Of a stretch of DNA of 64,000 bases, positions 16,401 through 60,000 are shown piece by piece. A program made the position numbers and the translations under genes. The notes beneath the pieces are model-generated. The model was given only the letters and a program-made list of their open reading frames with translations. It made no database searches and was not told the origin of the DNA. Position 1 is the stretch's first letter. Every line of letters begins with the position of its first letter. This DNA is from Siphonodentalium dalli (taxonomy: Eukaryota > Mollusca > Scaphopoda > Gadilida > Siphonodentaliidae): assembly GCA_032622095.1 (NCBI GenBank), contig CP136065.1, positions 39,187,503 to 39,251,502 of the forward strand, in the 5' to 3' direction.

Positions 16401-17138
16401 TCCCGTAATTCAGAAGATGGGTGTAATATTGCACCCATACTATAATTGTAAGTTGGGTTTTTCTAAAACAAAAAGTCATTGTGGAATAGACCTATGTCTA
16501 GTTACACTTTAATATGCCATTGTTGAACTGAGTTGGTAAAGGATCTAATTAAACTTTCAAACAGTTCACTATTGACCCAACAATTACAGTCTCCATTAGT
16601 ATTTTGAGATGAGGGATGGGTGTGAATTTTAGCACCCGTCATTTGAAAATTATGAGTGTGTATAGGTGTGAGTGCAATCACTCCCATCTCCTGGGAAGGA
16701 CTGAGACATGAGGTGTTTTTTGCTTCAAGTGGACTACATATTGTCAAAATTATATAAAACAATTTTTTTTTGCTTAGCCACGTGCATGAGCCGAGGCAAT
16801 TCTGCTCGACTGAAATGGTATGAAATAGACAATAATACTATTTCTGATGCCATGCACTTGGTGTCTCGAAGCTCTTAATAAGTAATATGGGAGAGTGGCT
16901 CCGCCCAGTTGTGACGAGGGATACTAATATTACCATGCCCGCAATGTTTACTGGGTTGAAGACAGAAATGTCTGAAGGGTGCTTCCATCTGTTTTTTATT
17001 GGTTAAAACTTTATAATATTTCGGACATGTCTATATTCTTTGGAATTATTTATAGAGTGCTGTGTAGTCCACAAGCTAAAACACACAAACAAATATATTA
17101 TTATTATAGTTCTAACAGAAGGGCATGGAACAAATTTC
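13455..17138 (+). repeat. Recent direct tandem duplication, unit 1842 bp
   Basis: Unit 1 is about 13455-15296 and unit 2 about 15297-17138. Matching landmarks are exactly 1842 bp apart (13872/15714, 14485/16327, 15137/16979), with only scattered substitutions and one-base indels. The junction lies at 'ATTATATATAGG', which is also present at the left edge of unit 1, suggesting microhomology or unequal exchange. Several short ORFs are shared by both units, one of 135 codons at 13872 that is split by a stop in unit 2. None has a recognisable domain. Confidence 0.9.
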
Positions 17139-17139
17139 A

Positions 17140-17450
17140 TATAAATGATAGACCCATTAGTGCAAGCTCCCATTAGTACAGTGTTATATGGAATGAACAT
17201 ACATAGATGCATACATAATTTTATTGCAAAATCTAGTGAACATTTCTGAGAACATTAAAGACCTTCATTTCTCTTATTATTCATGGTAAGAAACATGGTG
17301 TTGTAATTAAATCAAGCTGAAACCATAAATGCTCTGAACTATATTTTTATTATTTTTGGATTTTTTAAATAAATAATTAAATTGTTATCTCCATTGTTAT
17401 TTGATCCACATGTGCAAATCAATCTATACATTTAAAGGTTCTTTTTGGCT
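17140..17450. other. Intergenic, nothing seen
   Basis: AT-rich single-copy-looking sequence between the 1842-bp duplication and the imperfect repeat at 17.5 kb. Confidence 0.4.
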
Positions 17451-25424: not shown

Positions 25425-26918
25425 CTAGACATTTTGCAGCTGAACAATATATGATGTGATACAGTTATAGTTACTGCTATTGTTTCCATTTGAAACCACG
25501 AAGCACATCCTGGTAGGGTTGACACATATTCCGACGGGATTGGTTACTGATATTACTGAGCGACTACGTTGTCCGTCACGGCTCAGTTCCACCACGTCGT
25601 GACTGCGGTTGTTGCAGACGTAAATGTTGGTTCCAAACACACATACGTCCATCGGATTAGACCCGCCACAAGGTATCGTTCTGAGATGTGTCGCGAGATC
25701 CGATGACAACGCTATCACTTGATGTGCTCTATAATCCGTAACAAACACGACGTCACCCTTCGGAGATACAGCCACGCCCCATGGATACTTGAAGGCGTGC
25801 GACGACATAGCAATGACGTAACCACTCATTGTTAGCTTACGCACGCGACGTCCATTGTTACATGCAACGACTAATATGTCCCCAACAGATCCGATACCTG
25901 CACATCCTCCGGATACAGGAAACGATGTTTGGTGATTGAGATCCGAGGTTAGATACACCGATATCTGACTTCGTGCTTGGTGTGTTACGTAGATGCGGTC
26001 ATTAAGATGACATATACCAGTCGGTTGATCATTGATCGCGAGGGTGACAGACTTTGTGGTTTCACCCCTTTGTGTTACTACACTGAGAGTGTTCGGATTA
26101 GATGACGCAATAACCATATCAGACGTCGGAGTTTTGTGGATGAACGCCATGACCGACCCAGATCTTCCGCAGGAAAAGTCGAATTCCTTTACAATTTGAC
26201 TGATATGATTCTGACAAATACCGATATTACAAGAATATTTCACAATCTTCTTTATAGAATCCAGAACTCCTGTTTTGATGACGGCCTCGTAATCTATAGA
26301 CCATAATTCTTCGAAATCTCTGAGCAGACTTTTTGAATTGGATATAGTTTGATGGAGTTTGATTGAGCGCTCGTTCAGAGTTTTAACCCTTTGTGCTGCA
26401 GATGCTTCTGAAGTAGCTTGTGAGTCGACAGGAACGTTCTCTCCTCCCGGGTTTATTGCCGCCCCTTCACATGAACGTGATTCCGCATCTTGTTCTGGTG
26501 AAAGTTCTCCTTGTCTCTCTTTCTTCAGTTCGGACAGAACGTTTACTATCTTATCCATACTCCGTCCTGACAACTTGTGATTTGACATAGTCTCCCTAAC
26601 ACCATTGAGCGTTTTCTGCTCGCATTCATCAACGACTCGGCGAATCTCAGAAAATAAAGTCTGTATCTCCGTTAGCATATCCTTCTCTCGTCCGTCCTGT
26701 TTGGTTATCCAACCATTTGCTTCTAAGATTAGTTTTTCAAGACCTGATTCGCATTCTTTGATATCCGCTTCCATTTTTGCTGTCGCATTCGATAATTCTT
26801 CGAGTTGACATTTTGGATATGCAACTGAATGACACGTCGCACAACACAGTATGGCGTGTGTGCCGCAGAATGATTTGATATGCTGTGAGTGCAGCGAACA
26901 GAAATCGACGGTCGACAT
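25425..26918 (-). CDS. B-box/coiled-coil/NHL-like beta-propeller protein (TRIM-related, no RING)
   Basis: 497 aa, intact. Residues 7-37 carry a B-box type 2-like zinc pattern: C7-x2-H10, C18-x2-H21, C26-x2-C29, with C37 where a His is usual. Residues about 40-130 and 172-205 are heptad-rich and likely coiled coil, separated by a Ser/Glu/Gly-rich linker. Residues about 245-490 hold repeated blades of the form 'GVAVSP..DVVFVTD', 'DVCVFGTNIYVCN' and 'GICVNPTRMCFVVSN', as in NHL propellers. There is no RING, so if it works in ubiquitin signalling it would need a partner; bivalves have many such RING-less TRIM-like genes. The ATG lies 7 bases after a good acceptor ('TTTTTCAG', AG at 26926-26927), so there is a non-coding 5' exon upstream. 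A broken paralogue lies at 36572-38064. Confidence 0.9.
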   Translation of the reverse strand: MSTVDFCSLHSQHIKSFCGTHAILCCATCHSVAYPKCQLEELSNATAKMEADIKECESGLEKLILEANGWITKQDGREKDMLTEIQTLFSEIRRVVDECEQKTLNGVRETMSNHKLSGRSMDKIVNVLSELKKERQGELSPEQDAESRSCEGAAINPGGENVPVDSQATSEASAAQRVKTLNERSIKLHQTISNSKSLLRDFEELWSIDYEAVIKTGVLDSIKKIVKYSCNIGICQNHISQIVKEFDFSCGRSGSVMAFIHKTPTSDMVIASSNPNTLSVVTQRGETTKSVTLAINDQPTGICHLNDRIYVTHQARSQISVYLTSDLNHQTSFPVSGGCAGIGSVGDILVVACNNGRRVRKLTMSGYVIAMSSHAFKYPWGVAVSPKGDVVFVTDYRAHQVIALSSDLATHLRTIPCGGSNPMDVCVFGTNIYVCNNRSHDVVELSRDGQRSRSVISVTNPVGICVNPTRMCFVVSNGNNSSNYNCITSYIVQLQNV

Positions 26919-28790
26919 GGCTTACCTGAAAAATAAAATCGTTCTATCATTATGTTCTTGTCAAGTTACCATTTCACACCGACATGGACAAATACGATCT
27001 ACCAGAAACGCCGTATTGCGCACCGAAAATATATAACGACGCTATCTTGTGGAATGTAGCTACAACGGGGCAATACATGCCGAATATATTTCGGAATCTG
27101 CAACCAGGCTTATTTGTGAGTTCAAAGATAATTAAATGCCATGGTATGACATGTGCATTTTATAAATATATAACTACATATTGTTTATGTTAGTCGACAT
27201 TAGTTATTTTAGCGGGGTATAGTTATTCTCTATATATAGAATGTATGAATGTGGCAGTTCCACGTGTCAATAAAATTACAGTGCACTGCAGTTACATCCT
27301 TACATCACAGCGTGCTATACATATGGCGGTATATTAATTCTCGATGACAAGTGAAGGGGGTGTTAGAAATTTTATTTAATTTCACAAACTGCAAGGCAGA
27401 GCTCATAGTCCGGGGGGGGGGGGCTTATATGGGTACCCTTGCATCCCCTGGGACTTAACCCAACTCATTTTGTTCCTTATTATGTCCTTCAGTGTTTAAG
27501 CTATGTTGACCAAACAAATAGTGGCCGTGTAGACTCCAGACAAGATGGCGGCCATCATGGACGCCGTTTTCAGACTAGGGCCTAAGACAATTCGATGCAA
27601 ATTATAACGGGAAACTCTTGTAAAATGTATACAAATGTATATATTTTCGTGAAGCTAAGACATAATGACACTTTTATAGTGCAAAATTGAAACTTCCCAT
27701 TCAAGATGGCAGCCAAAATGGACTCCGGAAGTTGAAAATATTACGTTTTTTCACTTATAAGTCGGAATTTTATATATACGAAATTAATTAACCGAGAGCA
27801 CTAGTTAAATGGGCTCTTTCGTATTCACCATAACTAGCTCCATGAACTTATTTGAACTAATATCTAGACAATATCTTTATCTTTCATGCGACCAGACTTT
27901 TCATAGTCAGGTGAATGTATGTCAGTTATTAGACGCATCACATGAAATTTAACATTAGTTCTTGATATAATACTTCAATCAAAAACATCTATACAGTGTC
28001 AGGTACTATTCTCTTTCGGAAATAGCAAAACATGAAGCAGAGACAGTTCAGTTCTGTCCCAAGAGGTGTCTGTCGTATTTAATGGTGTCGAACATAAATT
28101 TCTCACGAAGCTGTACAGTTGGAAATAAATGCCCACCGCGATTGTTAATCATCACCATAATACGGAAAAAAGTGTTGCAACTTTTCTATCATTATTTGCA
28201 ATATTTGTTTACAAATATATGTATTGTGATTCGATATTTTCTTATGAGTCACTTAAAAATATAACTTGTCGTCGAACTCGTATTTCATATCATAGAAGAT
28301 TGTTGCAGTACATTGCGCAACATTGTCCTGGCATTTTCTTTATTTATTTGCAGATAGCTAGATATTAAGAATAATCAGGCGTGATATATCTGCGGAAGTG
28401 AATAGGCATTGACTTAACAGGAAATTGATAGTCTGTTGAAGCGGCACGTAGCGGCGGCTGGTGTTAAGGGAAATAACCGCAAAAAGATAATCCATTCGAT
28501 TCGAGCCGAGCTTTATTAACATAATAGGATTGATCGTTATCATTGCGCTAATGTCTTACGTCACTGTGCGTGTCCATAATAGACGTGCGTCTTACAGGCA
28601 TCCTAAATATAGGTCTGTGTACACTTAAGTTAATTATGATTTGATGTTTACGAAGTATTTTATTATTTTATTTTCGGATTGCGCTATACGATTGTTATAT
28701 CGAATAACAAATTTGAATTTAATTTGAATATGTGTCGGGCTGACACCATATTCTTACTTGACGTGTATTTTCTTGTGGTTGAACCTCATA
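26919..28790. other. Upstream region of the B-box gene; intron/5'UTR and dispersed fragments
   Basis: A splice acceptor at 26926-26927 (minus strand) implies an intron here; I could not fix the upstream exon. A G tract at about 27411-27422 is followed by 'CAAGATGGCGGCCATCATGG' (27541) and 'CAAGATGGCAGCC' (27704), diverged relatives of the units at 33.2-35.3 kb. No other gene is seen. Confidence 0.4.
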
Positions 28791-36571: not shown

Positions 36572-38064
36572 TTACACCTGGCCCACATATGATGTGATAG
36601 AGTAGTTCGACCCATTTGAAACCACGAAGCACATCCTGGTAGGGTTGACACATATTCCGATGGGATTGGTTACTGATATTACTGAGCGACTACGTTGTCC
36701 GTCACGGCTCAATTCCATCACTTGGTTACTGGTGTAGTTGCAGACGTAAATGTTGTCGCCGAACACACACACGCCAGTCGGACTAGACCCGCCACACGGT
36801 ATTGTGCTGAGATGAGTCGCGAGATCCGGGGACATCACTACCACGTGATGTGCGTTATGATCCGTCACAAAGACGGCGTCGATCTCAGGGGATACTGCCA
36901 CGCCACAAGGATTCTTGAAAGCGTATGTCGACTGACCAATGACGTCACCACTCGTTGTTAGAGCGCGCACGCAATGATCGCCGGGACATGCCACAACTAA
37001 TCTGTCGCCGACGGATCCGATACCTCTACAACCTCCAGATACAGGAAACGATGTTTGATGACTAAGACCTGATGTTTGATACACCGATATCTGACTTTGT
37101 TCCGGGTGTGATAGGTAGATGCGATCACTAAGATGATAGATACCAGACGGTTGAGAGTTGACCGTGAGGGTGACAGTCTTGGTGATTTTACCTGTATGTG
37201 TTACCAACATGAGCGTGTTCGGATTGTATGATGCAATAATTATATCCGATTGTGGACTTTTGTTGAGGAACGCCATTACCGACCAAGTTCCTCCGCAGGA
37301 AAAGTCGAATTCCTTTACTAATTGACTGATAGGCTTCTGACAAATAGCAATATCACACGAATCACTCAAAATCGTCTCTACCGAATCCAAAACTCCTCTA
37401 TTGATGACGGCCTCGTAATCTATCGGCGATAACTGTTCGAAATCTCTAAGCAGACTTTTTGAATTGGATACAGTTTGATGGAGCTTGATTGAGCGCTCGT
37501 TTAGAGATTTAACCCTTTGTGCAGCAGATACTTCTGAAGTAGCCTGTGCGTCGACAGGAACGTCCTCTCCTCCCGGGTTTATTTCCGCCCATTCACATGA
37601 ACGTGATTCCGCCTCTTTTTCTGGTAACAGTTCTACTTGTCTGTCTCTCTTAAGTTCGGACAGAACGTTTACTATCTTATCTACGCTCCGTGATGATAAC
37701 TTATGCTTTGACATTGTATCTCTAACGCGATTGAACATTTTCTTCTCGCAGTCATCGACGATACGTCGAATCTCAGAAAATAAATTCTGAACCTCCGCCA
37801 TCATATCCTTCTCTCTTCCGTCCTGTTTGGTCAGCCAACCGGGAATAGATTCCTGCTTATTGTTTGCTTCCGAGAATAATTGATCAAGATCTGATTCGAA
37901 TTGTTGGACATCCGCTTCCATCTTTGATATCGCTTTCGACAGATCTTCTAGTTGACATTTTGGATATGCTACCTCATGGCATGAGGCACAGCAAGGTTAA
38001 CGTGGGTACCACAGAATGAGTCTATAGGTTGTGGGTGCAGCTCACAAAATTCGGCGGCCGACAT
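36572..38064 (-). pseudogene. B-box/coiled-coil/NHL-like paralogue with frameshifted B-box
   Basis: The paralogue of the 25425-26918 gene, in the same orientation. The equivalent ATG is at 38064 and is followed by the first half of the B-box (C-x2-H, then C-x2-H). One base is missing at about 37994-37995, in the codon after 'HVN', so that frame stops 30 codons in; the correct B-box remainder (CC-A-S-C-H) continues in the next frame. From the internal Met at 37921, 449 codons of coiled coil and NHL-like propeller stay open and closely match the intact gene. Either the gene lost its B-box recently, it starts internally as a B-box-less propeller protein, or the assembly has a 1-base error. The ATG follows an acceptor (AG at 38072-38073). 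Confidence 0.8.
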
Positions 38065-47519: not shown

Positions 47520-47787
47520 CATGAATTAAATTTATAACTTAATTTGATTTTAAGATAACATGTTAAACTGAACGTTTACAGAAGACATCTTCGACTCAAA
47601 TGAATTATTTATTTCCATTTATATGTTATCGATATTAGATCGTTATTATTACTGGGAATTTATTTATATTGGCGTACAGTGTCCCTTTAAAAAGGCTGTA
47701 GATCGATATATCATATCTGTACCGGTATGTTAAATTAGCTCTTATACATCCTTCCAATTATTTACAATAAACGAGCATTGTCCGTTA
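47520..47787 (+). repeat. Host repeat H, copy B, left half (interrupted)
   Basis: Matches 19440-19678 and 63115-63950. It stops at 'GCATTGTCCGTTA' (47787), exactly where the GGGCGCG transposon begins. The remainder resumes at 58403. Confidence 0.8.
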
Positions 47788-48111
47788 GGGCGCGTACACA
47801 TGGCGGGCAAGAAAATATCAGGTATGCCCCATGTGACTTACTTGACCAATCAAATAAATAATACCGGAAAATATCCGACGAAGGCAGCGCGCTGATATTT
47901 TATCGCCAGTTGGTGATATGTGTTCACCTTGATTGGTGGACATCGGTATCTGTTAACTAATCTCTATAAGGGACACGCTGGTATAACCGTTCACGCACTC
48001 GAGTTATGATCCATCAATATTATCGCCTGTTTCAACAATTGACTTCGTAATTCCATTTTGGATTGTTTGACATTATCGCTGAGCTATTATATGGATATGT
48101 GTGGGGACATA

Positions 48112-48117
48112 TATATC
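48112..48117. repeat. Target-site duplication TATATC, left
   Basis: The hexamer immediately before the AGAAGAATAGG terminus; its partner is at 57555-57560. The surrounding ATATAT context makes part of the match easy, but it is exact in length and position. Confidence 0.8.
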
Positions 48118-48256
48118 AGAAGAATAGGCGTCTCCTTACCGTCACATCTAAAAATAGAATCTTTGGGGGTCTAAAATTGGTTGTGGGTGTCTCGTTCGCG
48201 TCACATCTAAAAATAGAATCTTTGGGGTCTAAAATTGGTTGTACTAAAATATTCCC
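48118..48256 (+). repeat. Left terminus with duplicated end motif
   Basis: After the 24-bp tip, the block 'ACATCTAAAAATAGAATCTT' plus 'TCTAAAATTGGTTGT' occurs twice (48142-48184 and 48201-48242). The second continues into GTACTAAAATATTCCC. The same block reappears once at 52482-52534, always pointing to the palindrome centre. Candidate recognition sites for replication or integration proteins. Confidence 0.75.
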
Positions 48257-48539
48257 AAAATATCAAAAACCCAAAAATTATTTTTCCAAAAATTATTTTT
48301 TCCAAAACATTTCAAAATCCCAAAACTTCCAAAAAATTTTAAAACCCCAAAATTTCAAAAAAGAAAAAAATTCAAAACCCTCAAAATTATTTCTCCAAAA
48401 AAAGTTTAAATAAAAAATTTATAACGAGTTTTCGGTTTCTGATAATCTCGATATTAAAATGTCGAATGTTAAATTATTTGCGCGTAATATCTTTCGTTAT
48501 TTTTTTTTGTTCAAATATTTTTCATGAAATTATTAATCG

Positions 48540-48767
48540 ATGTTTAGAAATAGCTTTATTGGACATTGTGACCATCGATATGAATGCATACATTCCAGTG
48601 TTTTATCGGACGCAGTTCATATAATTGTCATACCTGAAAATAGACACCATTACTTTTACATAAATAATAAAGAGCGTTTATTCTTTACACTCTCTCTATC
48701 CCATATGACAGGTGTGTATTATCGTGAATTATTGGAAGTTTTGAGATGTACTATGTTCAATCCCTAA
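48540..48767 (+). CDS. Hypothetical 75-aa ORF, left arm
   Basis: A small ORF reading toward the centre, with its counterpart at 56905-57132 (minus) differing by one residue (T/R). His- and Tyr-rich, no known domain. Its last third reads over 'ATTATCGTGAATTATTGGAAG', which also occurs at 51885-51906 as the 5' part of the zinc-finger gene region, so the ORF may be a by-product of a duplicated regulatory segment. Confidence 0.3.
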   Translation: MFRNSFIGHCDHRYECIHSSVLSDAVHIIVIPENRHHYFYINNKERLFFTLSLSHMTGVYYRELLEVLRCTMFNP

Positions 48768-49023
48768 CGGTCGAAAATTGTAATGTGAAATTACAACCCT
48801 CCAGAATGAATTGTCATATTCGCTGTACACGCAATCACACGCGACATTGGTGGTAACAATGTGTCTTTCACACCTTTGCTTTACCAAATGAATTATATTA
48901 TTTCCCCGGTCACAGTTATATGCTATTCAGAAAACATATCGATTTAATGTCTGAACAAACGAGTTAGTATCAATTAAGGTTGATAAACTGTGTCATTCAC
49001 ACGATAATTAGTTAGCCAAAAAC

Positions 49024-49233
49024 ATGCATACGTCCAGGACACTCAATTATATAAATTGCTTTGATGACATTGTTATAACAACATTACGTAATAACCACTT
49101 ATCGCCCCACATTCATACTTACGCTTTGGACATTTTATCAGTTTATCACGTGATCACTAAATGTGGCAATCGGGTATCCACCGATGCCTGCAATATATTA
49201 TTTATAATAATTGGACTCATTGATCTCACGTGA
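49024..49233 (+). other. Unassigned 69-codon reading, partly duplicated within the arm
   Basis: The second half (35 codons, 'SVYHVITKCGN..STDACN') is repeated at about 50297-50401. The reading survives in the right-arm counterpart at 56439-56648. It has no domain and is not near a promoter-like motif, so it is probably not a gene. Confidence 0.2.
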
Positions 49234-51180
49234 ATAATACTCTTAGTTGTTCCAATAAAATAGTTATCAAATTCGATCACCAATAGATTTGACTGTGGAA
49301 TGTAATGACCTTTAACTTATTTATCGATCTAAAGGGACACTCATTATGAATGAATGTTAACAATACAAGCGCACGGATGAAGAGCGTTGAACATATACGA
49401 AATTACTACACGAATGAATTGAACCTTGAAATTTATATTTCACATCTTACCAACAACAGCTACAGACATAATCATAGTATTATACTGTCTTGCATGTACA
49501 CACGCTATGACATCATTAAAGGCGGACAATCCACTCATGGTGTGACAACAGATACAGACATAGGCATAGTGTTATACAGTCTTCTATGTACCCATGCGAT
49601 GACACCATTAAAGTACATTGGATGTTAGGTCTATGACTCTTGAGTATGCACCAATCAATGAGCAAATGAGCAATAAAAATGAGCAAATGAGCAAGAAAGT
49701 GAGCAAATGAGCAAGAAAATGAGCAAATGAGCAAGAAAATGAGCAAATGAGCAAGAAAATGAGCAAATGAGCAATAAAAATGAGCAAATGAGCATAAAAA
49801 TTAGCAAATGAGCAAGAAAATGAGCAAATGAGCAAGAAAATGAGCAAATGAGCAATAAAAATGAGCAAATGAGCAAAAAAATTAGCAAATGAGCAAGAAA
49901 ATGAGCAAATGAGCAATAAAAATGAGCAAATGAGCAAATAAATGAGCAAATGAGCAAAAAAATGAGCAATAAAATGAGCAAATGAGCAATAAAAATGAGC
50001 AAATGAGCAAAAAAATGGGCATACCTGTATGTAGGCCTACCAGTGGATGAATAGTCTGCCGGAGAAGTACTGTGTAGACAGGTCTTGTCGGTAAGAGAGT
50101 CAGACGATAAGTGAAGGCTCGGCTATTAAAACATAGTAATGCGATAGCGAACATCAAACGAGTCTGCGCACGCATATCTGTCAAAGGATACGATGGCAGT
50201 CATTGGTCAATTTATCCCCGGTGTCAGCTCAGTACCCAATCGGGACGAAGCCGAAGGTCAACTCATTTTTTTTTGCTCATTATAGTACGTCACTTGAACA
50301 TTTTATCAGTTTATCACGTGATCACTAAATGTGGCAATTGGGTATCCACCGATGCCTGCAATTTATTATTTATAATAATTGGACTCATTGATCTCACGTA
50401 AATAATACTCTTAGTTGTTCCAATAAAATAGTTATCAAATTCGATCACCAATAGATTTGACTGTGGAATATAATGACCTTTAACTTATTTATCGATCTAT
50501 GTTAGAACATGGTCTTAACAAAAAACTTGACCATAACAAAAATTACCTTACATTTATGCATGAATCTAATTAGACCATACGTAAATATTGTCAGCTTATC
50601 GTCTGATGAGCAAATCCGATGTTTATCAAAAATAGTACAACTTCCAGTTGGTAATTACTCTTACGAATGAAGAGCGTTGAACATATACGAAATTACTACA
50701 CGAATGAACTGAAATTTATATTTTCACATCTTACCAACAACAGATACAGACATAGTCATAGTGTTATACTATCTTACATGTACCCATGCTATGACATCAT
50801 TCGAAGGGACAATACACTCAATGAGTTAAAGTGACACGAAACAAGGGACGTGATGTAATATTGGTGTTTGAATCTTAAAGGAACACAAGACACTCTAAAG
50901 GGACACTCATTATGAATGAATGTTAACAATACAAGCGCACGAATGAAGAGCGTTGAACATATACGAAATTACTACACGAATGAATTGAACCTTGAAATTT
51001 ATATTTCACATCTTACCAACAACAGCTACATGCATTATCATAGGGTTATACTGTCTTGCATATACACACGCTATGACATCATTAAAGGCGGACAATCCAC
51101 TCACGGTGTGACAACAGATACAGACATAGGCATAGTGTTATACAGTCTTCTATGTACCAATGCTATGACATAATTAAAGG
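49115..51180 (+). repeat. Internal direct duplication within the left arm
   Basis: 49120-49320 matches 50290-50500 ('ATCACGTGATCACTAAATG' to 'TTTAACTTATTTATCGATCT'). 49330-49620 matches 50895-51175 ('AAAGGGACACTCATTATGAA' onward). A third partial version of the latter lies at 50667-50830. Within each, a 70-bp module ending 'GCTATGACATCATTAAAGG' is doubled. The right arm has the same arrangement inverted (54500-56560). Confidence 0.75.
49655..50017 (+). repeat. GAGCAAAT tandem array, left arm (~20-bp period)
   Basis: About 18 units of 'AATGAGCAAATGAGCAAGAA' or its AATAAAAATGAGC variant. The periodicity makes long leucine/serine/phenylalanine-rich readings on the complementary strand that are not genes. 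The mirrored array in the right arm has the same length, with only a few base differences. Confidence 0.9.
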
Positions 51181-51315
51181 GGGGATAATACACGCACGGT
51201 GTGGAATGTTAAAGTGACACGCGGTAAGGGACGTGATGTAATATTGGTGAAACCCCCCCCCCTTATAGATATATAACGAAGACGAGAATAACATGTTGAT
51301 GAAGTTTATTGAAAT

Positions 51316-51885
51316 TTAATCATTGTCTGAATCTTCGACCGTTAGATTTACTTCTAAGAGTTTCTTGAATTTTCTCATCGCTTCATCTGCAGCCCATTCA
51401 TTATTATATCCGTGTTTGGTCAGTTTGACCATTTTCTTCATGATCATGGTATGTATGCGTGATGTTTTCAATCGATACTGGTATTCTATTAATCGTCTAT
51501 AACTTTTGAGAAACAGAGCAAACTCTGTGTCGATGGTATCCTCTTTTCCCGACATGCTCTCATCTCCCGAAATGCTCTCTTCTTCTTTCACATCATTGGT
51601 GACACGTTTCATCATACTTTTGAATGTGTCCATCTCGTTGACACATCGCGCAGCTTTCTTAAGACCGAATACCGTTCTACTACCGACGCCATTACCATCT
51701 TCTGAATCTGATAGCGTTCCACGTTCATCTTCATCTGAATCTAGAACCGCTTCGTCAGATTCATCGGTATCTTCTCCGAAGAGAGTTGGTTTTGTCTCGG
51801 ACATAACTCCGTGTTTAATCTGTTTATGTCTTTGTAGATTGTAGTTCGTCGATAAAATAATGCCACATAAATCACACCCGTGCAT
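51316..51885 (-). CDS. C2H2 zinc-finger acidic protein, left arm (intact)
   Basis: 189 aa. Residues 4-25 form one classical C2H2 finger (C4-x2-C7-x12-H20-x4-H25). Residues 37-65 are strongly acidic and Ser-rich. The C-terminal 100 residues are Lys-rich and predicted helical ('IEYQYRLKTSRIHTMIMKK'). A single finger plus an acidic patch suggests a DNA-binding regulatory protein. Its ATG overlaps the end of the 64-aa ORF by 14 bases in another frame. TATAAGAG lies about 28 bases upstream, and AATAAA follows the stop within 6 bases (51305-51310, minus). The right-arm copy has a premature stop. Confidence 0.65.
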   Translation of the reverse strand: MHGCDLCGIILSTNYNLQRHKQIKHGVMSETKPTLFGEDTDESDEAVLDSDEDERGTLSDSEDGNGVGSRTVFGLKKAARCVNEMDTFKSMMKRVTNDVKEEESISGDESMSGKEDTIDTEFALFLKSYRRLIEYQYRLKTSRIHTMIMKKMVKLTKHGYNNEWAADEAMRKFKKLLEVNLTVEDSDND

Positions 51886-52066
51886 TATCGCGAATTATTG
51901 GAAGAACCATCACTCTTATAAGTAGCGATAAAAAGAGAGAATAAGGTGCGGTATACAACCGTCGCTCTAAGAGTACGTTCGTCCCGGGGCTAGGGTATAG
52001 ATATTTGACCGCCGGTGATTCAATTAATGCCAATTTATCAGTATGGTACTCTATGTATTCATTCAT
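51872..52066 (-). CDS. 64-aa ORF, left arm
   Basis: Between the 108-aa and zinc-finger ORFs, starting 7 bases after the former's stop and overlapping the latter by 14 bases. The translation is identical to the right-arm copy. Hydrophobic C-terminal half ('PYSLFLSLLIRVMVLPII') that could be a membrane segment, no known family. Compact, overlapping spacing is virus-like. Confidence 0.45.
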   Translation of the reverse strand: MNEYIEYHTDKLALIESPAVKYLYPSPGTNVLLERRLYTAPYSLFLSLLIRVMVLPIIRDNARV

Positions 52067-52073
52067 GATTTGG

Positions 52074-52400
52074 CTAATCGTATGACACTGCTCTTTTCAT
52101 TTTCTTCTTATTATTATTAGACAAACCTCCATCAGACACTCTCTTGTTGGTTTGTTTGGACGATTTACGTGTGTTTGTCAACTTATTTGCTGCAACTTCA
52201 GCCTTAGCCATTTCAATCGCTTGAGCGATGGGTGTCACCACGTTAATAAGTGGTTTTAAAACGTCTTCTTCACTATCACTATTTTTAGTTCTGTCAATAA
52301 AGTATCGACCCTGATTATCTGGTATTAACTTCCCATCAACCATATCTCTGAAATGTTTTCTCCACATTTCAAGATCTGCTGGAATATACGGGATCGACAT
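52074..52400 (-). CDS. 108-aa basic protein, left arm
   Basis: The N-terminal part has 'IPYIPADLEMWRKHFRDMV' and a short aromatic strand 'GRYFID'; an acidic spacer 'NSDSEEDV' follows. Then comes a helix 'VVTPIAQAIEMAKAEV' and a tail rich in Lys/Arg/Asn. From memory, small proteins with this plan (W..HF..M near the N-terminus, VTP..QA-E-AK helix, basic tail) occur in invertebrate Polinton-like elements; this is unverified. First gene of the outward cluster on this arm. A TATAAGAG box lies about 60 bases upstream of the ATG (mirrored at 53203). Confidence 0.6.
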   Translation of the reverse strand: MSIPYIPADLEMWRKHFRDMVDGKLIPDNQGRYFIDRTKNSDSEEDVLKPLINVVTPIAQAIEMAKAEVAANKLTNTRKSSKQTNKRVSDGGLSNNNKKKMKRAVSYD

Positions 52401-52481
52401 GTTTCTTCAAAATGTACAAGTCACTCTTTTTTCTGCATTTTATTTTAGAAAGTTTATCGCCTCTTATAAAAATCGATTATT

Positions 52482-52900
52482 GCATCTAAAAATAGAATCT
52501 TTGGGTCTAAAATTGGTTGTACTAAAATATTCCCAAAAAACCCAAAACTTCAAAAATTTCAAAAAACTTCAAAAATTTCAAAAAACTTCAAAAATTTCAA
52601 AAACTTCAAAAATTTCAAAAATTTCAAAAACTTCAAAAAACTTCAAAAATTTAAAAAAATTCAAAAATAAGACCCCGCCGGCGGCGGACCCCGGCGGCGG
52701 CGGCGGCGGCAACCGGCGGCGGCGGCAACCGGCGGCGGCATTGCGGTAATGACGGTATTTGCCGCCGGCGGCGGTGGCATTGCAGTATTTTACTGCGGGG
52801 TCCGTCGGTGGCGGACCCCGGCGGCGGCGGCGGCACCGCCGCCGCAGTAAAATACCGCAATGCCGCCGCCGCCGGCGGCAAATACCGGCATTACCGCAAT

Positions 52901-52936
<36 letters not shown>

Positions 52937-53189
52937 AAATACCGTCATTACCGCAATGCCGCCGCCGCCGCCGCCGCCGGGGTCCGCCGCCGGCGGGGTC
53001 TTATTTTTGAAGTTTTTGAATTTTTTGAAGTTTTTTGAAGTTTTTGAAATTTTTGAAATTTTTGAAGTTTTTGAAAATTTTGAAGTTTTTTGAAATTTTT
53101 GAAGTTTTTTGAAATTTTTGAAGTTTTGGGTTTTTTGGGAATATTTTAGTACAACCAATTTTAGACCCAAAGATTCTATTTTTAGATGC
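52482..53189. other. Central core: facing end motifs, TTCAAAAA tracts and CCG hairpin
   Basis: Inner copies of the end motif sit at 52482-52534 (forward) and 53137-53189 (reverse). Next inward are tracts of TTCAAAAA (52537-52670) and the mirrored TTTTTGAA (53010-53130). The middle 52671-53008 is almost pure CCG/GGC with 'GCAATGCCG' and 'AATACCG' spacers. Both arms carry GGCGGACCCCG modules; at 52797-52819 GGGGTCCG/CGGACCCC make an 8-bp stem of their own. It resembles a replication-origin or hairpin-end structure, and long readings here are compositional artefacts. Confidence 0.75.
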
Positions 53190-53202
53190 AATAATCGATT
53201 TT

Positions 53203-53210
53203 TATAAGAG
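53203..53210 (+). promoter_or_regulatory. TATAAGAG box upstream of the 108-aa ORF
   Basis: TATAAGAG, 60 bases before the ATG at 53271. The same octamer lies at 53751-53758, before the zinc-finger ORF, and both are mirrored in the left arm. TATA-like by sequence and position. Confidence 0.5.
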
Positions 53211-53270
53211 GCGATAAACTTTCTAAAATAAAATGCAGAAAAAAGAGTGACTTGTACATTTTGAAGAAAC

Positions 53271-53597
53271 ATGTGGATCCCGTATATTCCAGCAGATCTT
53301 GAAATGTGGAGAAAACATTTCAGAGATATGGTTGATGGGAAGTTAATACCAGATAATCAGGGTCGATACTTTATTGACAGAACTAAAAATAGTGATAGTG
53401 AAGAAGACGTTCTAAAACCACTTATTAACGTGGTGACACCCATCGCTCAAGCGATTGAAATGGCTAAGGCTGAAGTTGCAGCAAATAAGTTGACAAACAC
53501 ACGTAAATCGTCCAAACAAACCAACAAGAGAGTGTCTGATGGAGGTTTGTCTAATAATAATAAGAAGAAAATGAAAAGAGCAGTGTCATACGATTAG
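53271..53597 (+). CDS. 108-aa basic protein, right arm
   Basis: Identical to the left-arm copy except residue 2 (Trp instead of Ser, from TGG versus TCG). First gene of the rightward cluster (108 aa, 64 aa, zinc finger). See 52074-52400 for domain description. Confidence 0.6.
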   Translation: MWIPYIPADLEMWRKHFRDMVDGKLIPDNQGRYFIDRTKNSDSEEDVLKPLINVVTPIAQAIEMAKAEVAANKLTNTRKSSKQTNKRVSDGGLSNNNKKKMKRAVSYD

Positions 53598-53604
53598 CCA
53601 AATC

Positions 53605-53799
53605 ATGAATGAATACATAGAGTACCATACTGATAAATTGGCATTAATTGAATCACCGGCGGTCAAATATCTATACCCTAGCCCCGGGACGAACGTACTC
53701 TTAGAGCGACGGTTGTATACCGCACCTTATTCTCTCTTTTTATCGCTACTTATAAGAGTGATGGTTCTTCCAATAATTCGCGATAATGCACGGGTGTGA
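53605..53799 (+). CDS. 64-aa ORF, right arm
   Basis: The translation is identical to 51872-52066. Starts 7 bases after the 108-aa stop; its last 14 bases overlap the zinc-finger start. Confidence 0.45.
   Translation: MNEYIEYHTDKLALIESPAVKYLYPSPGTNVLLERRLYTAPYSLFLSLLIRVMVLPIIRDNARV
53751..53758 (+). promoter_or_regulatory. TATAAGAG box upstream of the zinc-finger ORF
   Basis: TATAAGAG 27 bases before the ATG at 53786, inside the 64-aa ORF. If used, the zinc-finger mRNA would have almost no leader; the 60-base spacing at 53203 fits better with a short 5'UTR. Confidence 0.45.
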
Positions 53800-54355
53800 T
53801 TTATGTGGCATTATTTTATCGACGAACTACAATCTACAAAGACATAAACAGATTAAACACGGAGTTATGTCCGAGACAAAACCAACTCTCTTCGGAGAAG
53901 ATACCGATGAATCTGACGAAGCGGTTCTAGATTCAGATGAAGATGAACGTGGAACGCTATCAGATTCAGAAGATGGTAATGGCGTCGGTAGTAGAACGGT
54001 ATTCGGTCTTAAGAAAGCTGCGTGATGTGTCAACGAGATGGACACATTCAAAAGTATGATGAAACGTGTCACCAATGATGTGAAAGAAGAAGAGAGCATT
54101 TCGGGAGATGAGAGCATGTCGGGAAAAGAGGATACCATCGACACAGAGTTTGCTCTGTTTCTCAAAAGTTATAGACGATTAATAGAATACCAGTATCGAT
54201 TGAAAACATCACGCATACATACCATGATCATGAAGAAAATGGTCAAACTGACCAAACACGGATATAATAATGAATGGGCTGCAGATGAAGCGATGAGAAA
54301 ATTCAAGAAACTCTTAGAAGTAAATCTAACGGTCGAAGATTCAGACAATGATTAA
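53786..54355 (+). pseudogene. C2H2 zinc-finger acidic protein, right arm (premature stop)
   Basis: The same reading frame as the intact left copy, but a CGA-to-TGA change at 54023-54025 stops it after 79 codons, just beyond the finger and acidic region. The frame then stays open to 54355, with a Met at 54038. A C-to-T change in a CpG is the likely cause. Truncated product: DNA-binding finger plus acidic patch without the helical tail. Confidence 0.7.
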
Positions 54356-54360
54356 ATTTC

Positions 54361-54366
54361 AATAAA
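54361..54366 (+). terminator. AATAAA polyadenylation signal of the right cluster
   Basis: AATAAA five bases past the zinc-finger stop; mirrored at 51305-51310 for the left cluster. It supports real transcription units reading outward from the core. Confidence 0.55.
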
Positions 54367-55654
54367 CTTCATCAACATGTTATTCTCGTCTTCGTTATAT
54401 ATCTATAAGGGGGGGGGGGTTTCACCAATATTACATCACGTCCCTTACCGCGTGTCACTTTAACATTCCACACCGTGCGTGTATTATCCCCCCTTTAATT
54501 ATGTCATAGCATTGGTACATGGAAGACTGTATAACACTATGCCTATGTCTGTATCTGTTGTCACACCGTGAGTGGATTGTCCGCCTTTAATGATGTCATA
54601 GCGTGTGTATATGCAAGACAGTATAACCCTATGATAATGCATGTAGCTGTTGTTGGTAAGATGTGAAATATAAATTTCAAGGTTCAATTCATTCGTGTAG
54701 TAATTTCGTATATGTTCAACGCTCTTCATTCGTGCGCTTGTATTGTTAACATTCATTCATAATGAGTGTCCCTTTAGAGTGTCTTGTGTTCCTTTAAGAT
54801 TCAAACACCAATATTACATCACGTCCCTTGTTTCGTGTCACTTTAACTCCTTGAGTGTATTGCCCCTTCGAATGATGTCATAGCATGGGTACATGTAAGA
54901 TAGTATAACACTATGACTATGTCTGTATCTGTTGTTGGTAAGATGTGAAAATATAAATTTCAGTTCATTCGTGTAGTAATTTCGTATATGTTCAACGCTC
55001 TTCATTCGTAAGAGTAATTACCAACTGGAAGTTGTACTATTTTTGATAAACATCGGATTTGCTCATCAGACGATAAGCGGACAATATTTACGTATGGTCT
55101 AATTAGATTCATGCATAAATGTAAGGTAATTTTTGTTATGGTCAAGTTTTTTGTTAAGACCATGTTCTAACATAGATCGATAAATAAGTTAAAGGTCATT
55201 ATATTCCACAGTCAAATCTATTGGTGATCGAATTTGATAACTATTTTATTGGAACAACTAAGAGTATTATTTACGTGAGATCAATGAGTCCAATTATTAT
55301 AAATAATAAATTGCAGGCATCGGTGGATACCCAATTGCCACATTTAGTGATCACGTGATAAACTGATAAAATGTTCAAGTGACGTACTATAATGAGCAAA
55401 AAAAAATGAGTTGACCTTCGGCTTCGTCCCGATTGGGTACTGAGCTGACACCGGGGATAAATTGACCAATGACTGCCATCGTATCCTTTGACAGATATGC
55501 GTGCGCAGACTCGTTTGATGTTCGCTATCGCATTACTATGTTTTAATAGCCGAGCCTTCACTTATCGTCTGACTCTCTTACCGACAAGACCTGTCTACAC
55601 AGTACTTCTCCGGCAGACTATTCATCCACTGGTAGGCCTACATACAGGTATGCC

Positions 55655-56014
55655 CATTTTTTTGCTCATTTGCTCATTTTTATTGCTCATTTGCTCATTT
55701 TATTGCTCATTTTTTTGCTCATTTGCTCATTTATTTGCTCATTTGCTCATTTTTATTGCTCATTTGCTCATTTTCTTGCTCATTTGCTAATTTTTTTGCT
55801 CATTTGCTCATTTTTATTGCTCATTTGCTCATTTTCTTGCTCATTTGCTCATTTTATTGCTCATTTGCTAATTTTTATGCTCATTTGCTCATTTTTATTG
55901 CTCATTTGCTCATTTTCTTGCTCATTTGCTCATTTTCTTGCTCATTTGCTCATTTTCTTGCTCATTTGCTCACTTTCTTGCTCATTTGCTCATTTTTATT
56001 GCTCATTTGCTCAT
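55655..56014 (-). repeat. GAGCAAAT tandem array, right arm
   Basis: Inverted counterpart of 49655-50017, seen here as repeated TTGCTCATTTGCTCATTTTC. Equal length in both arms argues that arm duplication, or conversion between arms, was recent, since such arrays change length quickly. Confidence 0.9.
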
Positions 56015-56904
56015 TGATTGGTGCATACTCAAGAGTCATAGACCTAACATCCAATGTACTTTAATGGTGTCATCGCATGGGTACATAGAAGACTGTATAA
56101 CACTATGCCTATGTCTGTATCTGTTGTCACACCATGAGTGGATTGTCCGCCTTTAATGATGTCATAGCGTGTGTACATGCAAGACAGTATAATACTATGA
56201 TTATGTCTGTAGCTGTTGTTGGTAAGATGTGAAATATAAATTTCAAGGTTCAATTCATTCGTGTAGTAATTTCGTATATGTTCAACGCTCTTCATCCGTG
56301 CGCTTGTATTGTTAACATTCATTCATAATGAGTGTCCCTTTAGATCGATAAATAAGTTAAAGGTCATTACATTCCACAGTCAAATCTATTGGTGATCGAA
56401 TTTGATAACTATTTTATTGGAACAACTAAGAGTATTATTCACGTGAGATCAATGAGTCCAATTATTATAAATAATATATTGCAGGCATCGGTGGATACCC
56501 GATTGCCACATTTAGTGATCACGTGATAAACTGATAAAATGTCCAAAGCGTAAGTATGAATGTGGGGCGATAAGTGGTTATTACGTAATGTTGTTATAAC
56601 AATGTCATCAAAGCAATTTATATAATTGAGTGTCCTGGACGTATGCATGTTTTTGGCTAACTAATTATCGTGTGAATGACACAGTTTATCAACCTTAATT
56701 GATACTAACTCGTTTGTTCAGACATTAAATCGATATGTTTTCTGAATAGCATATAACTGTGACCGGGGAAATAATATAATTCATTTGGTAAAGCAAAGGT
56801 GTGAAAGACACATTGTTACCACCAATGTCGCGTGTGATTGCGTGTACAGCGAATATGACAATTCATTCTGGAGGGTTGTAATTTCACATTACAATTTTCG
56901 ACCG

Positions 56905-57132
56905 TTAGGGATTGAACATAGTACATCTCAAAACTTCCAATAATTCACGATAATACACACCTGTCATATGGGATAGAGAGAGTCTAAAGAATAAACGCTC
57001 TTTATTATTTATGTAAAAGTAATGGTGTCTATTTTCAGGTATGACAATTATATGAACTGCGTCCGATAAAACACTGGAATGTATGCATTCATATCGATGG
57101 TCACAATGTCCAATAAAGCTATTTCTAAACAT
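56905..57132 (-). CDS. Hypothetical 75-aa ORF, right arm
   Basis: Inverted counterpart of 48540-48767, open over the full length. See the left-arm copy for the reasons for doubt. Confidence 0.3.
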   Translation of the reverse strand: MFRNSFIGHCDHRYECIHSSVLSDAVHIIVIPENRHHYFYINNKERLFFRLSLSHMTGVYYRELLEVLRCTMFNP

Positions 57133-57416
57133 CGATTAATAATTTCATGAAAAATATTTGAACAAAAAAAAATAACGAAAGATATTACGCGCAAATAATT
57201 TAACATTCGACATTTTAATATCGAGATTATCAGAAACCGAAAACTCGTTATAAATTTTTTATTTAAACTTTTTTTGGAGAAATAATTTTGAGGGTTTTGA
57301 ATTTTTTTCTTTTTTGAAATTTTGGGGTTTTAAAATTTTTTGGAAGTTTTGGGATTTTGAAATTTTTTGGAAAAAATAATTTTTGGAAAAATAATTTTTG
57401 GGTTTTTGATATTTTG

Positions 57417-57554
57417 GGAATATTTTAGTACAACCAATTTTAGACCCCAAAGATTCTATTTTTAGATGTGACGCGAACGAGACACCCACAACCAATTTTA
57501 GACCCCCAAAGATTCTATTTTTAGATGTGACGGTAAGGAGACGCCTATTCTTCT
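57417..57554 (-). repeat. Right terminus with duplicated end motif
   Basis: The inverted counterpart of 48118-48256, with both end-motif copies retained. I noted no difference in this stretch. Confidence 0.75.
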
Positions 57555-57560
57555 TATATC
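57555..57560. repeat. Target-site duplication TATATC, right
   Basis: The hexamer immediately after the terminal CCTATTCTTCT. Removing the palindrome and one hexamer rejoins 'GGGGACATATATATC' to 'TTTTGAGGGTTTCC' of the outer transposon. Confidence 0.8.
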
Positions 57561-58387
57561 TTTTGAGGGTTTCCGCTGACGGAGGATGTCCATGGACCAA
57601 AGACCAAAGACCCAAGATCACATAATTGAATTTGCACACCTCCCATCGTCTTTGAATTTCCCAAGTACCTCACATACCTTGAATTTTGACTCGACACCGG
57701 GGAGGGAGGGGCCTAGAAGAAATTCCAAACCAATAATTTGACCAAAGTAGGAAAAATGCAAATGTTGGTATAAAACCACGAATTCCATACACATTAATGG
57801 TTGAAAAATCAGACTACAAGAACAATTTCAAACCATTGTTGTGAAATTTCCAACTAATATTGTTTCCAAGATGGCGGGGGTCTCATGTCACCACATGCAC
57901 CCATGTAAGTTCGGTAACGTAATGTACACCACAGCCACATGCACCAAGCAACAATCTCCTGAAAACTTCATATGGGGTATCAATGGGGGTGGGGTCATCC
58001 GATTTGCCACAAAACCATAATAACATATGTCATCCCACATATACATGCACTATGAAATTATAACATTTCCAAATTTCCAAATAACGTGACCACTATCTCA
58101 TTATGCAGACGGTCTTTATGCATGAGATCAGCAACGTTGCTAATCCCACCCGACTTCGGTAATACATGTCAACAGTTGGAAATTTCAAAAAGCTATGAAT
58201 TGCCAAAATGGACTATAGGTTATTTACCGACGCAATTCACTTGAACCAGCATGACTAATACTGTTCTGATTGAGCTCAATCAACGCCGTCTAAACCGCCA
58301 CGTTCTCACGGGCGTAATCTTTGCAGCAAGAAAATATCAGTGTGCAATTTTACCTGATATTTTCTTGCAGATATTTTCTTGCAGCTT
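57561..58387. other. Right interior of the outer transposon
   Basis: No ORF. It carries repeated 'CCAAATTTCCAA'-like strings and, near its end, facing CAAGAAAATATC boxes. The matching left interior (47803-48111) is shorter and unrelated, as expected for a non-autonomous element with only terminal similarity. Confidence 0.55.
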
Positions 58388-58402
58388 CATGTGTACGCGC
58401 CC

Positions 58403-60000
58403 TTAAGATAGTGTATAGTTCAACAACCTGTTTTGAGACACAAACCGTTTCACCGAAACGAATAAACATAAAATATATATATGACAGTCACACGATTTAG
58501 AAATCTAAGTCATACCTAAATATAGAATCGCGCGATGACGAAACGAAACCGAAACAGATTGGGAAGCAGCTTGTCGGGGAATTACCCAGAATCTATTTTG
58601 CACTTCCGTAAATACGTTGCATATTCTACGCGGTCATGTCTATACATGTACGCCTGATGTCGCGGGTGAACACAGTGAATGTACATGAATAGTAATTGAC
58701 CGCCAAATATACACAACACACCAGTTCATCGACATCAAAATATTGCTGTTATATAAACCTTAGTGAGATCATGTATGAATGTACGCTGACCTTAGGCTTA
58801 TTTCGTGCTCGACGGCCAATTATTCAATATAATTGTCTCTCTAAATGACCGATGTACATCAAATACATCGTAAATCATGCATTCTAATTATCCCATAATA
58901 GGGATGGAACACTCTGCACATGATTGTATTGCCAGATACTTACGTGTTTTAGTGTTTCGCTTGAAAGTATTCACAGAAGGTTTGAGCTCAGTGGATCTAA
59001 GTATAATAGCTATGAGAGATAACTCTACCTGGTGTTTGGACATGAGTATTCAGATAACAATACTTTAAAACTGTATGGATTCGGGGATGGAACGCTTGTA
59101 CTATTTTCCAGTATACTCAATCGCATTGACGCCATGAGCAATTTTGACTGGTTAAGTCCATAAATTCCCGTGGGACGGCTAAGCTCTCATCACCACGCAC
59201 TACTCATTGTCTTCTGAACGACACAGATAACTTTAATAAAACAAATTTCTGTAAGGCTATACCAAATAAACATCAATAGATTATCATCACATTTTCTTAG
59301 AAAATTGGGGCGGCGAATTTTATGTTTTATCTTTAAATTACTGCGCCACATTCAGTGATAAAACAGTCCTATATTCACGAATGCATACATAGTGCTAAAC
59401 TATATACGCATCAGTAAAATGTAATATGTGTAAATAAACATTGATAAATTATAATACAACTATTTGTATTTTTATCGTCTACATTGATGTATGGGTTTAT
59501 ATTATGAAGAACGTAATGGATAAGTTACGCAAGTGAAACTGGTTCATACCAAACCACAATATTGTTATGTTTAAGAGAATAATTATTCACAGTATCTCTA
59601 TATTTGGTATGTGTGCAAACTGTAAACGTGCTTGAACAGACTTCAGCATTCCACACAACCCATGCAAGCATCAATGACATTTGTTAAATAGGGGTAGACT
59701 CATCCATGTGGATCGTTATACGTAGCTATACTTTTTTGTAATGACGATGAATGTATTACTGGCCTTCGACATAGTGTCATTATTATCATATATCGTCTAT
59801 ATCATCTTTGTGATAAAGGTATACCCACATTCCACAGTCTATTGTTTTACAGCGGGTATTAGGGGCCGTTCATAGGGTGGCCAAAACATCGGGGACCGAG
59901 GTGATAATTTAGGCATTTTTACAGGTCTACCATTAAATACTGGTCAATTTATAAATCATGTAGTAATTCTAGACAGGTATTGTCATCCGTTCCAATTTGT
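58403..60000 (+). repeat. Host repeat H, copy B, right half
   Basis: Continues from 47787 after the insertion ('TTAAGATAGTGTATAG') and matches 19683-21300 in order, including 'CGATGACGAAACGAAACCG' (58534), 'GGAATTACCCAGAATC' (58578) and 'TACTTACGTGTTTTAG' (58937). Confidence 0.8.

What the first reader, a model, noticed from the sequence alone, without database searches (positions are those of the whole stretch)
48118..57554. 9.4-kb palindrome integrated as one unit: a snap-back, Polinton-like element
Seen: near-perfect inverted arms, ends AG...CT, a 6-bp target duplication TATATC, and different DNA outside both ends. Known: Polinton/Maverick elements make 6-bp duplications and have AG termini; linear protein-primed DNA genomes such as adenovirus yield defective molecules that are inverted duplications of one end. 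Inference: an element shaped like such a defective genome was integrated, presumably by an integrase supplied in trans. I know of no described palindromic Polinton of this kind.
Basis: partly seen in the sequence, partly recalled or inferred. Interest (0 to 1): 0.92.

Follow-up and report, generated by a model that had tools for sequence, protein, structure and literature searches.

The report
Palindromic satellite elements of animal Polintons
The 9.4-kb palindrome is one copy of a large family of mirror-image mobile elements in this animal genome that carry their own small genes and share their ends with full-size virus-like Polinton transposons, which probably copy and insert them.

Summary
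The palindrome (48118-57554, arms ~99.7% alike, TSD TATATC) lies at C5:39.2 Mb of a 2.23-Gb, 9-contig assembly and belongs to a multi-copy family. Of 18 related elements examined (24 in the ranked list), 11 are palindromes. Of 14 with both ends read, 12 have perfect 6-bp TSDs, 2 one mismatch, and all have end pairs identical over 38 nt. A 16.45-kb Polinton with pPolB, integrase-chromodomain, protease-like and ATPase-like ORFs shares ends and TIR at ~95%. The palindromes are not one-off defectives: they carry a zinc-finger gene not found in the Polinton pieces read (150 of 150 best-scoring copies open, 133 at 100% aa), a Polinton-related 108-aa gene, or a zinc-finger/packaging-ATPase fusion. 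Their GC-rich centre often ends in two abutting hairpins, like an AAV duplex-dimer axis. One sister pair differs 6% in the terminal repeat but 0.3% elsewhere, alike in both arms: ends were exchanged, then mirrored. Best explanation: non-autonomous, gene-bearing Polinton satellites replicating by snap-back and integrated in trans. Packaging hijack is plausible but untested.

The parts
48112..48117 (.). target-site duplication TATATC, left copy
57555..57560 (.). target-site duplication TATATC, right copy
48118..52710 (+). left arm of the palindrome
52961..57554 (-). right arm of the palindrome (inverted copy)
48118..49123 (+). terminal inverted repeat shared with full-size Polintons (94.5-95.6% over 48186-49123), left
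56549..57554 (-). terminal inverted repeat shared with full-size Polintons, right
49657..50021 (+). tandem array of AATGAGCAAATGAGC-type units; absent from subfamily B (L013, L022) and from the Polinton pieces read (L023-L026, L028, L029)
55651..56015 (-). mirror copy of the tandem array
51316..51885 (-). 189-aa protein (zf189) with a C2H2 pattern (Pfam zf-C2H2 below cut-off) and acidic stretch; TATAAG 35 nt upstream of the ATG, AATAAA after the stop
53786..54355 (+). right-arm copy of zf189, with a premature stop (difference at 54023)
52074..52400 (-). 108-aa protein (p108), 75% aa identity to a gene of the full-size Polinton
53271..53597 (+). right-arm copy of p108
52483..52669 (+). inner, diverged copy of the terminal sequence, pointing to the core (mirror copy 53002-53188)
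52660..53011 (.). GC-rich palindromic core, one long stem
52795..52845 (.). tip of the core: two abutting 10-bp hairpins with 5-nt loops on a stem (T shape)

Best explanation
The palindrome is one copy of a family of non-autonomous, gene-bearing Polinton satellites whose commonest form, in the sample read, is a complete palindrome. Shown: ends, TIR and 6-bp TSD shared with full-size Polintons in the same genome; many copies; open own genes; a GC-rich centre that in most cores ends in two abutting hairpins; ends matched within an element but variable between elements; a terminal repeat exchanged and present on both arms. Inferred: the helper's protein-primed polymerase starts at the single end type; a displaced palindromic strand snaps back into a hairpin with one double-stranded end; copying through the hairpin turn regenerates the palindrome and re-mirrors any change; the helper's integrase inserts the product. 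More speculative: the zinc-finger, p108 and ATPase-fusion genes serve replication or packaging of the satellite in helper particles.
For: Palindrome and TSD. 11 of 18 related elements read are palindromes, window included. TSD 12 of 14 perfect, 2 with one mismatch; ends identical 38/38 in 14 of 14. Genome: 395 end motifs against 0 for the reversed control; among the 100 places listed, 43 inward-facing pairs, 40 with identical ends; 37 end types, chance identity 2.7%, at most 8 in 10,000 shuffles. Full-size relative: pPolB E 2.9e-51, rve 4.5e-15, chromodomain 8.6e-8, adenain 6e-4; TIR 94.5-95.6%. zf189: 150 scored matches, all open, 133 at 100% aa; 48 of 49 neighbour pairs within 10 kb are divergent mirror pairs. 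p108 dN/dS Polinton versus palindrome 0.28-0.37. In the TIR all 14 palindrome arms with a partner are closer to their own other arm than to any other element; in the gene block 12 of 14, with one tie and one exception. End exchange on both arms: TIR 5.9-6.3% versus 0.23-0.33% for the rest; L013's left end 97.9% to Polinton L028. Array copy number alike between arms, variable between elements, r = 0.96, 10 elements. Two-hairpin tip: 0 of 200 shuffles as stable, 1 of 2000 Markov 51-mers with the shape, 8 of 11 cores by local fold.
Against: Arm-to-arm gene conversion after insertion could also equalise arms. Full-size Polintons with 1-kb TIRs have matched outer ends too, so end matching alone does not prove a hairpin intermediate; over the whole TIR 3 of 4 Polinton TIRs are closer to another Polinton than to their own partner. 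The tip shows no compensatory changes; in a wider 420-nt fold only 4 of 9 GC cores show both hairpins with stems of 10 bp or more; C6_1035, C1_0916 and C9_0572 lack the shape; L031 has lost the core. Among group-A copies pN/pS is 0.52 for zf189 and 1.00 for p108, so near-identity of copies mostly reflects recent spread. The 108-aa length alone is not unusual (99 of 2000 Markov sequences reach it). Intactness of a helper was not established: one element's p108 homologue has a stop (L026), and the pPolB region of L023 lies in more than one frame. No extrachromosomal form, expression, replication or particle was observed.
Confidence: 0.75

Rival explanations
1. Ordinary foldback-type DNA transposon with very long terminal inverted repeats, moved by cut-and-paste and kept symmetrical by gene conversion between arms in the chromosome.
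For: Foldback-like Galileo elements also have long, internally repetitive TIRs and copies made of two TIRs only (PMC3573991 passages). Arms here contain tandem arrays.
Against: 6-bp TSD and AG...CT ends identical in kind to those of pPolB/integrase Polintons in the same genome; Galileo duplicates 7 bp (PMC4168063 passages). A terminal repeat exchanged and present on both arms at 0.3% divergence elsewhere, and end identity in 40 of 43 pairs, fit copying of one end from the other during replication better, without excluding conversion.
Confidence: 0.12
2. One-off defective Polinton genome: inverted duplication of one end after template switching, integrated once in trans.
For: Ends, TIR and p108 block are Polinton-related.
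Against: Nine palindromes with their own TSDs, window included, recurrent core and own genes; zf189 not found in the Polinton pieces. It may still describe the origin of the first ancestor.
Confidence: 0.05
3. Parvovirus-like element: hairpin-ended linear DNA replicated by rolling hairpin, with the T-shaped core as its telomere and the genomic copy as a duplex dimer.
For: Core tip has the stem-plus-two-hairpins layout of an AAV ITR; AAV makes duplex dimers with the ITR at the axis of symmetry when nicking fails (PMC1131931 passages).
Against: No ORF long enough for a Rep/NS1 protein; the outer end forms no unusual hairpin (z -0.02); the ends are those of Polintons.
Confidence: 0.05
4. Assembly artefact from inverted long-read chimaeras.
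For: Inverted artefacts are known from long-read libraries (recalled, not searched).
Against: Different flanks with a TSD, collinear flank relative, arm-specific mutations, the same structure at other places with own TSDs.
Confidence: 0.02

Closest known systems
Polinton/Maverick elements (polintoviruses)
   Same: 6-bp TSD, AG...CT ends, long TIR, p108-type gene; full-size relatives with pPolB, rve-chromo integrase, protease-like and ATPase-like ORFs share the ends
   Different: 9.4 kb instead of 15-20 kb, fully palindromic, no polymerase or integrase, own zinc-finger genes and a GC hairpin core
AAV duplex dimers and self-complementary AAV genomes
   Same: inverted-repeat dimer with a T-shaped hairpin at the axis of symmetry (PMC1131931 passages)
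   Different: no Rep gene, outer ends are Polinton TIRs without hairpins, found integrated with a TSD
Foldback/Galileo transposons (P superfamily)
   Same: very long, internally repetitive inverted arms; many copies consisting only of arms (PMC3573991 passages)
   Different: TSD length, ends, gene content, hairpin core and sharing of ends with a protein-primed replicon
Bidnaviruses
   Same: a proposed chimera of Polinton-type replication with a parvovirus lineage (PMC4061559 passages)
   Different: ssDNA viruses with their own PolB and capsid; their ITRs are reported not to form parvovirus-type hairpins
Virophages and other satellite viruses
   Same: small element that appears to depend on a larger related replicon; subfamily B carries a packaging-type ATPase
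   Different: no capsid gene recognised here; dependence inferred from shared ends only
Kalilo plasmid deletion derivative forming hairpin and duplex DNA (Vierula and Bertrand 1992; title seen in a reference list only)
   Same: by its title, a deletion derivative of a senescence plasmid that takes a hairpin form
   Different: mitochondrial plasmid, not a chromosomal gene-bearing family

Membership tests
Polinton/Maverick (as non-autonomous member) | 6-bp target-site duplication (PMC10045372 and PMC12220804 passages) | tested here: met
   window TATATC; of 14 elements with both ends read 12 perfect, 2 with one mismatch
Polinton/Maverick (as non-autonomous member) | AG...CT termini (recalled; the defining paper is not held) | tested here: met
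   14 of 14 begin AGAAGAATAG; the ends were located by that motif
Polinton/Maverick (as non-autonomous member) | terminal repeats shared with a full-size Polinton | tested here: met
   94.5-95.6% over ~940 bp with L023-L026
[quoted passage not shown] 15-20 kb (PMC4028283 passages) | tested here: not met
   the window element is 9.4 kb and its longest frame is 192 residues; the relative C2:144267904-144284354 has them (pPolB, rve and chromo above cut-off, protease just under, ATPase weak Pfam matches)
Foldback/Galileo (P superfamily) | 7-bp TSD and P-type transposase | tested here: not met
   6-bp TSD; no ORF of transposase length
IS3EU/GingerRoot | 6-bp TSD with TA...TA ends (PMC10045372 passages) | tested here: not met
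   ends AG...CT
Parvovirus / AAV duplex dimer | T-shaped hairpin at the axis of symmetry | tested here: met
   window; family: 8 of 11 cores by local fold, 4 of 9 by wider fold
Parvovirus / AAV duplex dimer | hairpin ITRs at the outer ends and a Rep/NS1 gene | tested here: not met
   outer end z -0.02; no ORF of that length
Satellite virus of a Polinton | replication and packaging by a helper | not testable with these tools
   only shared ends, an exchanged TIR and a packaging-type gene are seen

The most novel reading that the evidence does not exclude
These are self-complementary satellite viruses of an animal Polinton: hairpin-folded genomes with one usable end type, replicated by the helper's protein-primed polymerase through a T-shaped turn, and directed into helper capsids by zinc-finger factors (one fused to the packaging ATPase) that recognise the satellite's own DNA, perhaps its tandem arrays.
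Probability: 0.35. Interest if true: 0.95.

Novelty: new variant of a known kind. Interest (0 to 1): 0.86.

Why it matters
Defective palindromic genomes are known from linear DNA viruses in culture (recalled). Here a palindromic form appears to be a stable, gene-bearing, genome-colonising state of a mobile element. If confirmed it adds satellites to the animal Polinton world, links protein-primed replication with AAV-like self-complementary genomes, and gives a natural system in which mirrored mutations in two arms record each replication cycle. It also offers sequence evidence that animal Polintons and these elements exchanged ends recently in this lineage, and a way to ask whether Polinton capsid and packaging genes are used.

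Tried and rejected
The protein database search for zf189 and p108 could not be made. IMG/VR scans with zf189, p108, the 567-aa fusion, a subterminal 22-mer, a degenerate p108 pattern and a core pattern found no relative; the tool warns that records of this genome or near ones may be left out. One exact 22-mer in an Arcobacter MAG was taken as chance and not followed. zf189 had no match in phage records, PHROGs or PDB and only below-cut-off zinc-finger matches in Pfam; p108 had only weak Pfam and PHROG matches. Single-sequence structure models were too poor to use (mean pLDDT 43 and 65). Of 8 Polinton ORFs given to Pfam 4 had no match, among them the 421-aa ORF next to the p108 homologue, which also had none in PDB; calling it a capsid gene would rest on position and recall. 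Order of the two core hairpins (L022 reversed against the others) was rejected as evidence for hairpin transfer: a palindrome has no fixed orientation, so both orders are expected. Covariation in the tip: none. Census of pPolB and of the subfamily B protein could not be made because the genome search was unreachable.
Full report
What is there. The element spans 48118-57554 with TSD TATATC on both sides. Its arms are inverted copies differing by 14 substitutions and one indel over 48118-52690. From each end inward lie: a ~1-kb terminal repeat that begins with two copies of a motif 59 bp apart; a repeat-rich stretch including an array of AATGAGCAAATGAGC-type units; a 189-aa gene with a C2H2 pattern (zf189; Pfam zf-C2H2 E 0.003, below its cut-off) and a 108-aa gene (p108), both read outward from the centre, each with a TATAAG box 35 or 68 nt upstream; a diverged inner copy of the terminal sequence; and a GC-rich core. 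The 189-aa frame is not expected by chance (0 of 2000 Markov sequences of the gene block reach it); 108 aa alone would be (99 of 2000).

The core. Folded as DNA, 52640-53040 forms one long stem (-239 kcal/mol against a mean of -117 for 100 shuffles, z -22) whose tip is two abutting 10-bp hairpins with 5-nt loops. None of 200 shuffles of the 51-nt tip is as stable, and 1 of 2000 Markov 51-mers has two such hairpins. In a local fold of 11 related cores, window included, 8 show the two hairpins, C6_1035 and C1_0916 fold otherwise, and C9_0572 did not match the search expression. In a wider 420-nt fold only 4 of 9 GC cores show both hairpins with stems of 10 bp or more. A further element, L031, has lost this core and carries a GGGCGGGC-type tract instead. 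On eight aligned tips 98.7% of pair cells are standard pairs against 34-66% for slid versions, but no pair shows a change on both sides, so there is conservation but no covariation support.

The family. The genome search places the window at C5:39187503-39251502 of a 2.23-Gb assembly in 9 contigs. The outer 983 bp gave 40 scored matches of 1,910 candidates, many in inverted pairs. By my reading of that list they define 24 elements; I read stretches of 18, window included. Eleven are palindromes: the window, C6_1035, C1_0916, C3_2117, C9_0572, C9_0636, C8_0914, C9_0433, C1_2302, C8_1098 (partial stretch) and C7_0866 (L031). Three are shorter or asymmetric (C4_1518, C1_1491, C3_0723). Four are of the Polinton type, two of them read only in part (L028, L029). 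The sample is ranked by similarity to the window and is not a random draw. An end pattern occurs 202 + 193 times in the genome against 0 + 0 for the reversed control. Only the first 100 places (C1 to early C3) were listed; among them are 43 inward-facing pairs: 7 under 7.5 kb, 21 of 7.5-11 kb, 4 of 11-15.5 kb, 9 of 15.5-17 kb and 2 longer. Whether those pairs enclose palindromes was not checked beyond the loci read. zf189 has 150 scored matches of 3,300 candidates, all with an open 192-residue frame and 133 at 100% identity (these are the best-scoring copies, so damaged ones are under-represented). They fall into 49 neighbour pairs within 10 kb, 48 of them divergent mirror pairs, and 52 places whose partner is not among the 150.

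The helper. At C2:144267904-144284354 and C4:256505346-256521894 lie ~16.5-kb elements with the same ends and a ~1.06-kb TIR. Only the first was annotated: of 8 ORFs given to Pfam, one is a pPolB (PF03175, E 2.9e-51), one an integrase with chromodomain (PF00665 4.5e-15; PF00385 8.6e-8), one an adenain-like protease (PF00770 6e-4, just under the cut-off), one an ATPase with weak AAA/A32 matches, and 4 have no match. Whether it is intact is open: the pPolB region lies in more than one frame. Its TIRs are 95.2-95.6% identical to the window's over ~940 bp, and p108 has a 75% homologue there, with 81% DNA identity over 52008-52474. The homologues in L026 and L029 contain stops. dN/dS between the Polinton and palindrome p108 genes is 0.28-0.37. 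zf189 was not found in the Polinton pieces (tblastn, E 1e-3).

Two gene sets. Subfamily A carries zf189 plus p108; a relative (L014) carries an 82.6% zf189 without a detected p108. Subfamily B (L013, L022) carries instead a 567-aa protein: a zinc-finger pattern, an A32-type ATPase (PF04665 E 9.9e-6; 31% identity to the helper's ATPase, E 5e-30) and a C-terminal part similar to zf189 (23%, E 1e-7). L022 has it intact in both arms, L013 in one. The tandem array is present in the A-type loci and in L010, L014 and L030, and absent from L013, L022, L023-L026, L028 and L029. This suggests, without proving, that zf189 acts on the array and that these proteins concern handling or packaging of the satellite's DNA.

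Evidence on mechanism. Ends vary between elements (37 types among 100 places) but match within a pair in 40 of 43, against a chance identity of 2.7% and at most 8 in 10,000 shuffles. In all 14 elements with both ends read the outer 38 nt are identical. In the TIR, all 14 palindrome arms with a partner in the alignment are closer to their own other arm than to any other element; for the full-size Polintons this holds for 1 of 4; in the gene block it holds for 12 of 14 arms, with one tie and one exception. The copy number of the array is alike in the two arms and different between elements (r 0.96; 10 elements with an array in both arms). Most telling, L013 and L022 differ by 5.9-6.3% in the first 1,011 positions but by 0.23-0.33% over positions 1300-4300, in both arms alike, while arms within each element differ by 0.1-0.4%; the indel-rich junction between was left out. 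L013's left end is 97.9% identical to the Polinton L028, its right end 97.4%. A terminal repeat was therefore exchanged, and the change appears on both arms. A snap-back cycle, in which one arm templates the other, produces this in one step; cut-and-paste needs two exchanges or efficient later gene conversion. The AAV literature describes the same topology: when terminal nicking fails, copying runs through the hairpin and gives duplex dimers with the ITR at the axis (PMC1131931, passages). Bidnaviruses are proposed to have joined Polinton-type replication with a parvovirus lineage (PMC4061559, passages), though their ends are reported not to form such hairpins.

Selection and age. Within subfamily A the gene block differs by 0.2-1.0% between elements, with pN/pS 0.52 for zf189 and 1.00 for p108. 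Copies thus look young and mostly drifting after insertion; constraint shows over the deeper split of p108 from the Polinton, and weakly for zf189 against L014 (0.54-0.60).

Literature. I saw search listings and passages only, not whole papers. Searches bearing on palindromic Polintons, palindromic or foldback elements with Mavericks, and satellites of Polintons (20 of 21, 12 of 28 and 15 of 31 hits listed) showed nothing that, by title and start of abstract, describes palindromic Polinton satellites. One study of Polinton-like viruses in cryptophytes accepted TIRs of 100 bp to 8 kb (PMC12220804, passages), so long TIRs as such have been allowed for. The library holds open-licence papers only, so absence there is weak.

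Limits. Helper dependence, replication mode and any packaging are inferred from sequence.

Noticed in passing
window 47787-48117 and 57561-58403: The palindrome sits inside a ~1.17-kb insert with short inverted ends (GGGCGCGTACACATG...), which itself interrupts a local repeat copy.
   Followed up: partly
window 25425-26921 and 36572-37996: Two related NHL-repeat ORFs, about 82% identical at DNA level.
   Followed up: no
window 13451-15301 and 15292-17143: Direct repeat of 1.85 kb at 98.7% identity.
   Followed up: no
G000:C1:159746518-159783947: Six same-orientation element ends spaced about 5.4 kb, then one inverted end: a tandem array of this family's ends.
   Followed up: no
L014 (C3:211742480-211752040): A palindromic copy with TSD CGTATG whose flanks are themselves inverted repeats for about 50 bp, as if it had inserted at the centre of another inverted repeat.
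   Followed up: no
L031 4796-5080 and L023 about 8171-8320: A GGGCGGGC-type GC tract occurs both at the centre of one palindrome that lost the usual core and near the middle of the full-size Polinton.
   Followed up: partly
L013 2457-4153 and 5103-6806: The zinc-finger/ATPase fusion is intact in one arm and broken into two frames in the other.
   Followed up: no
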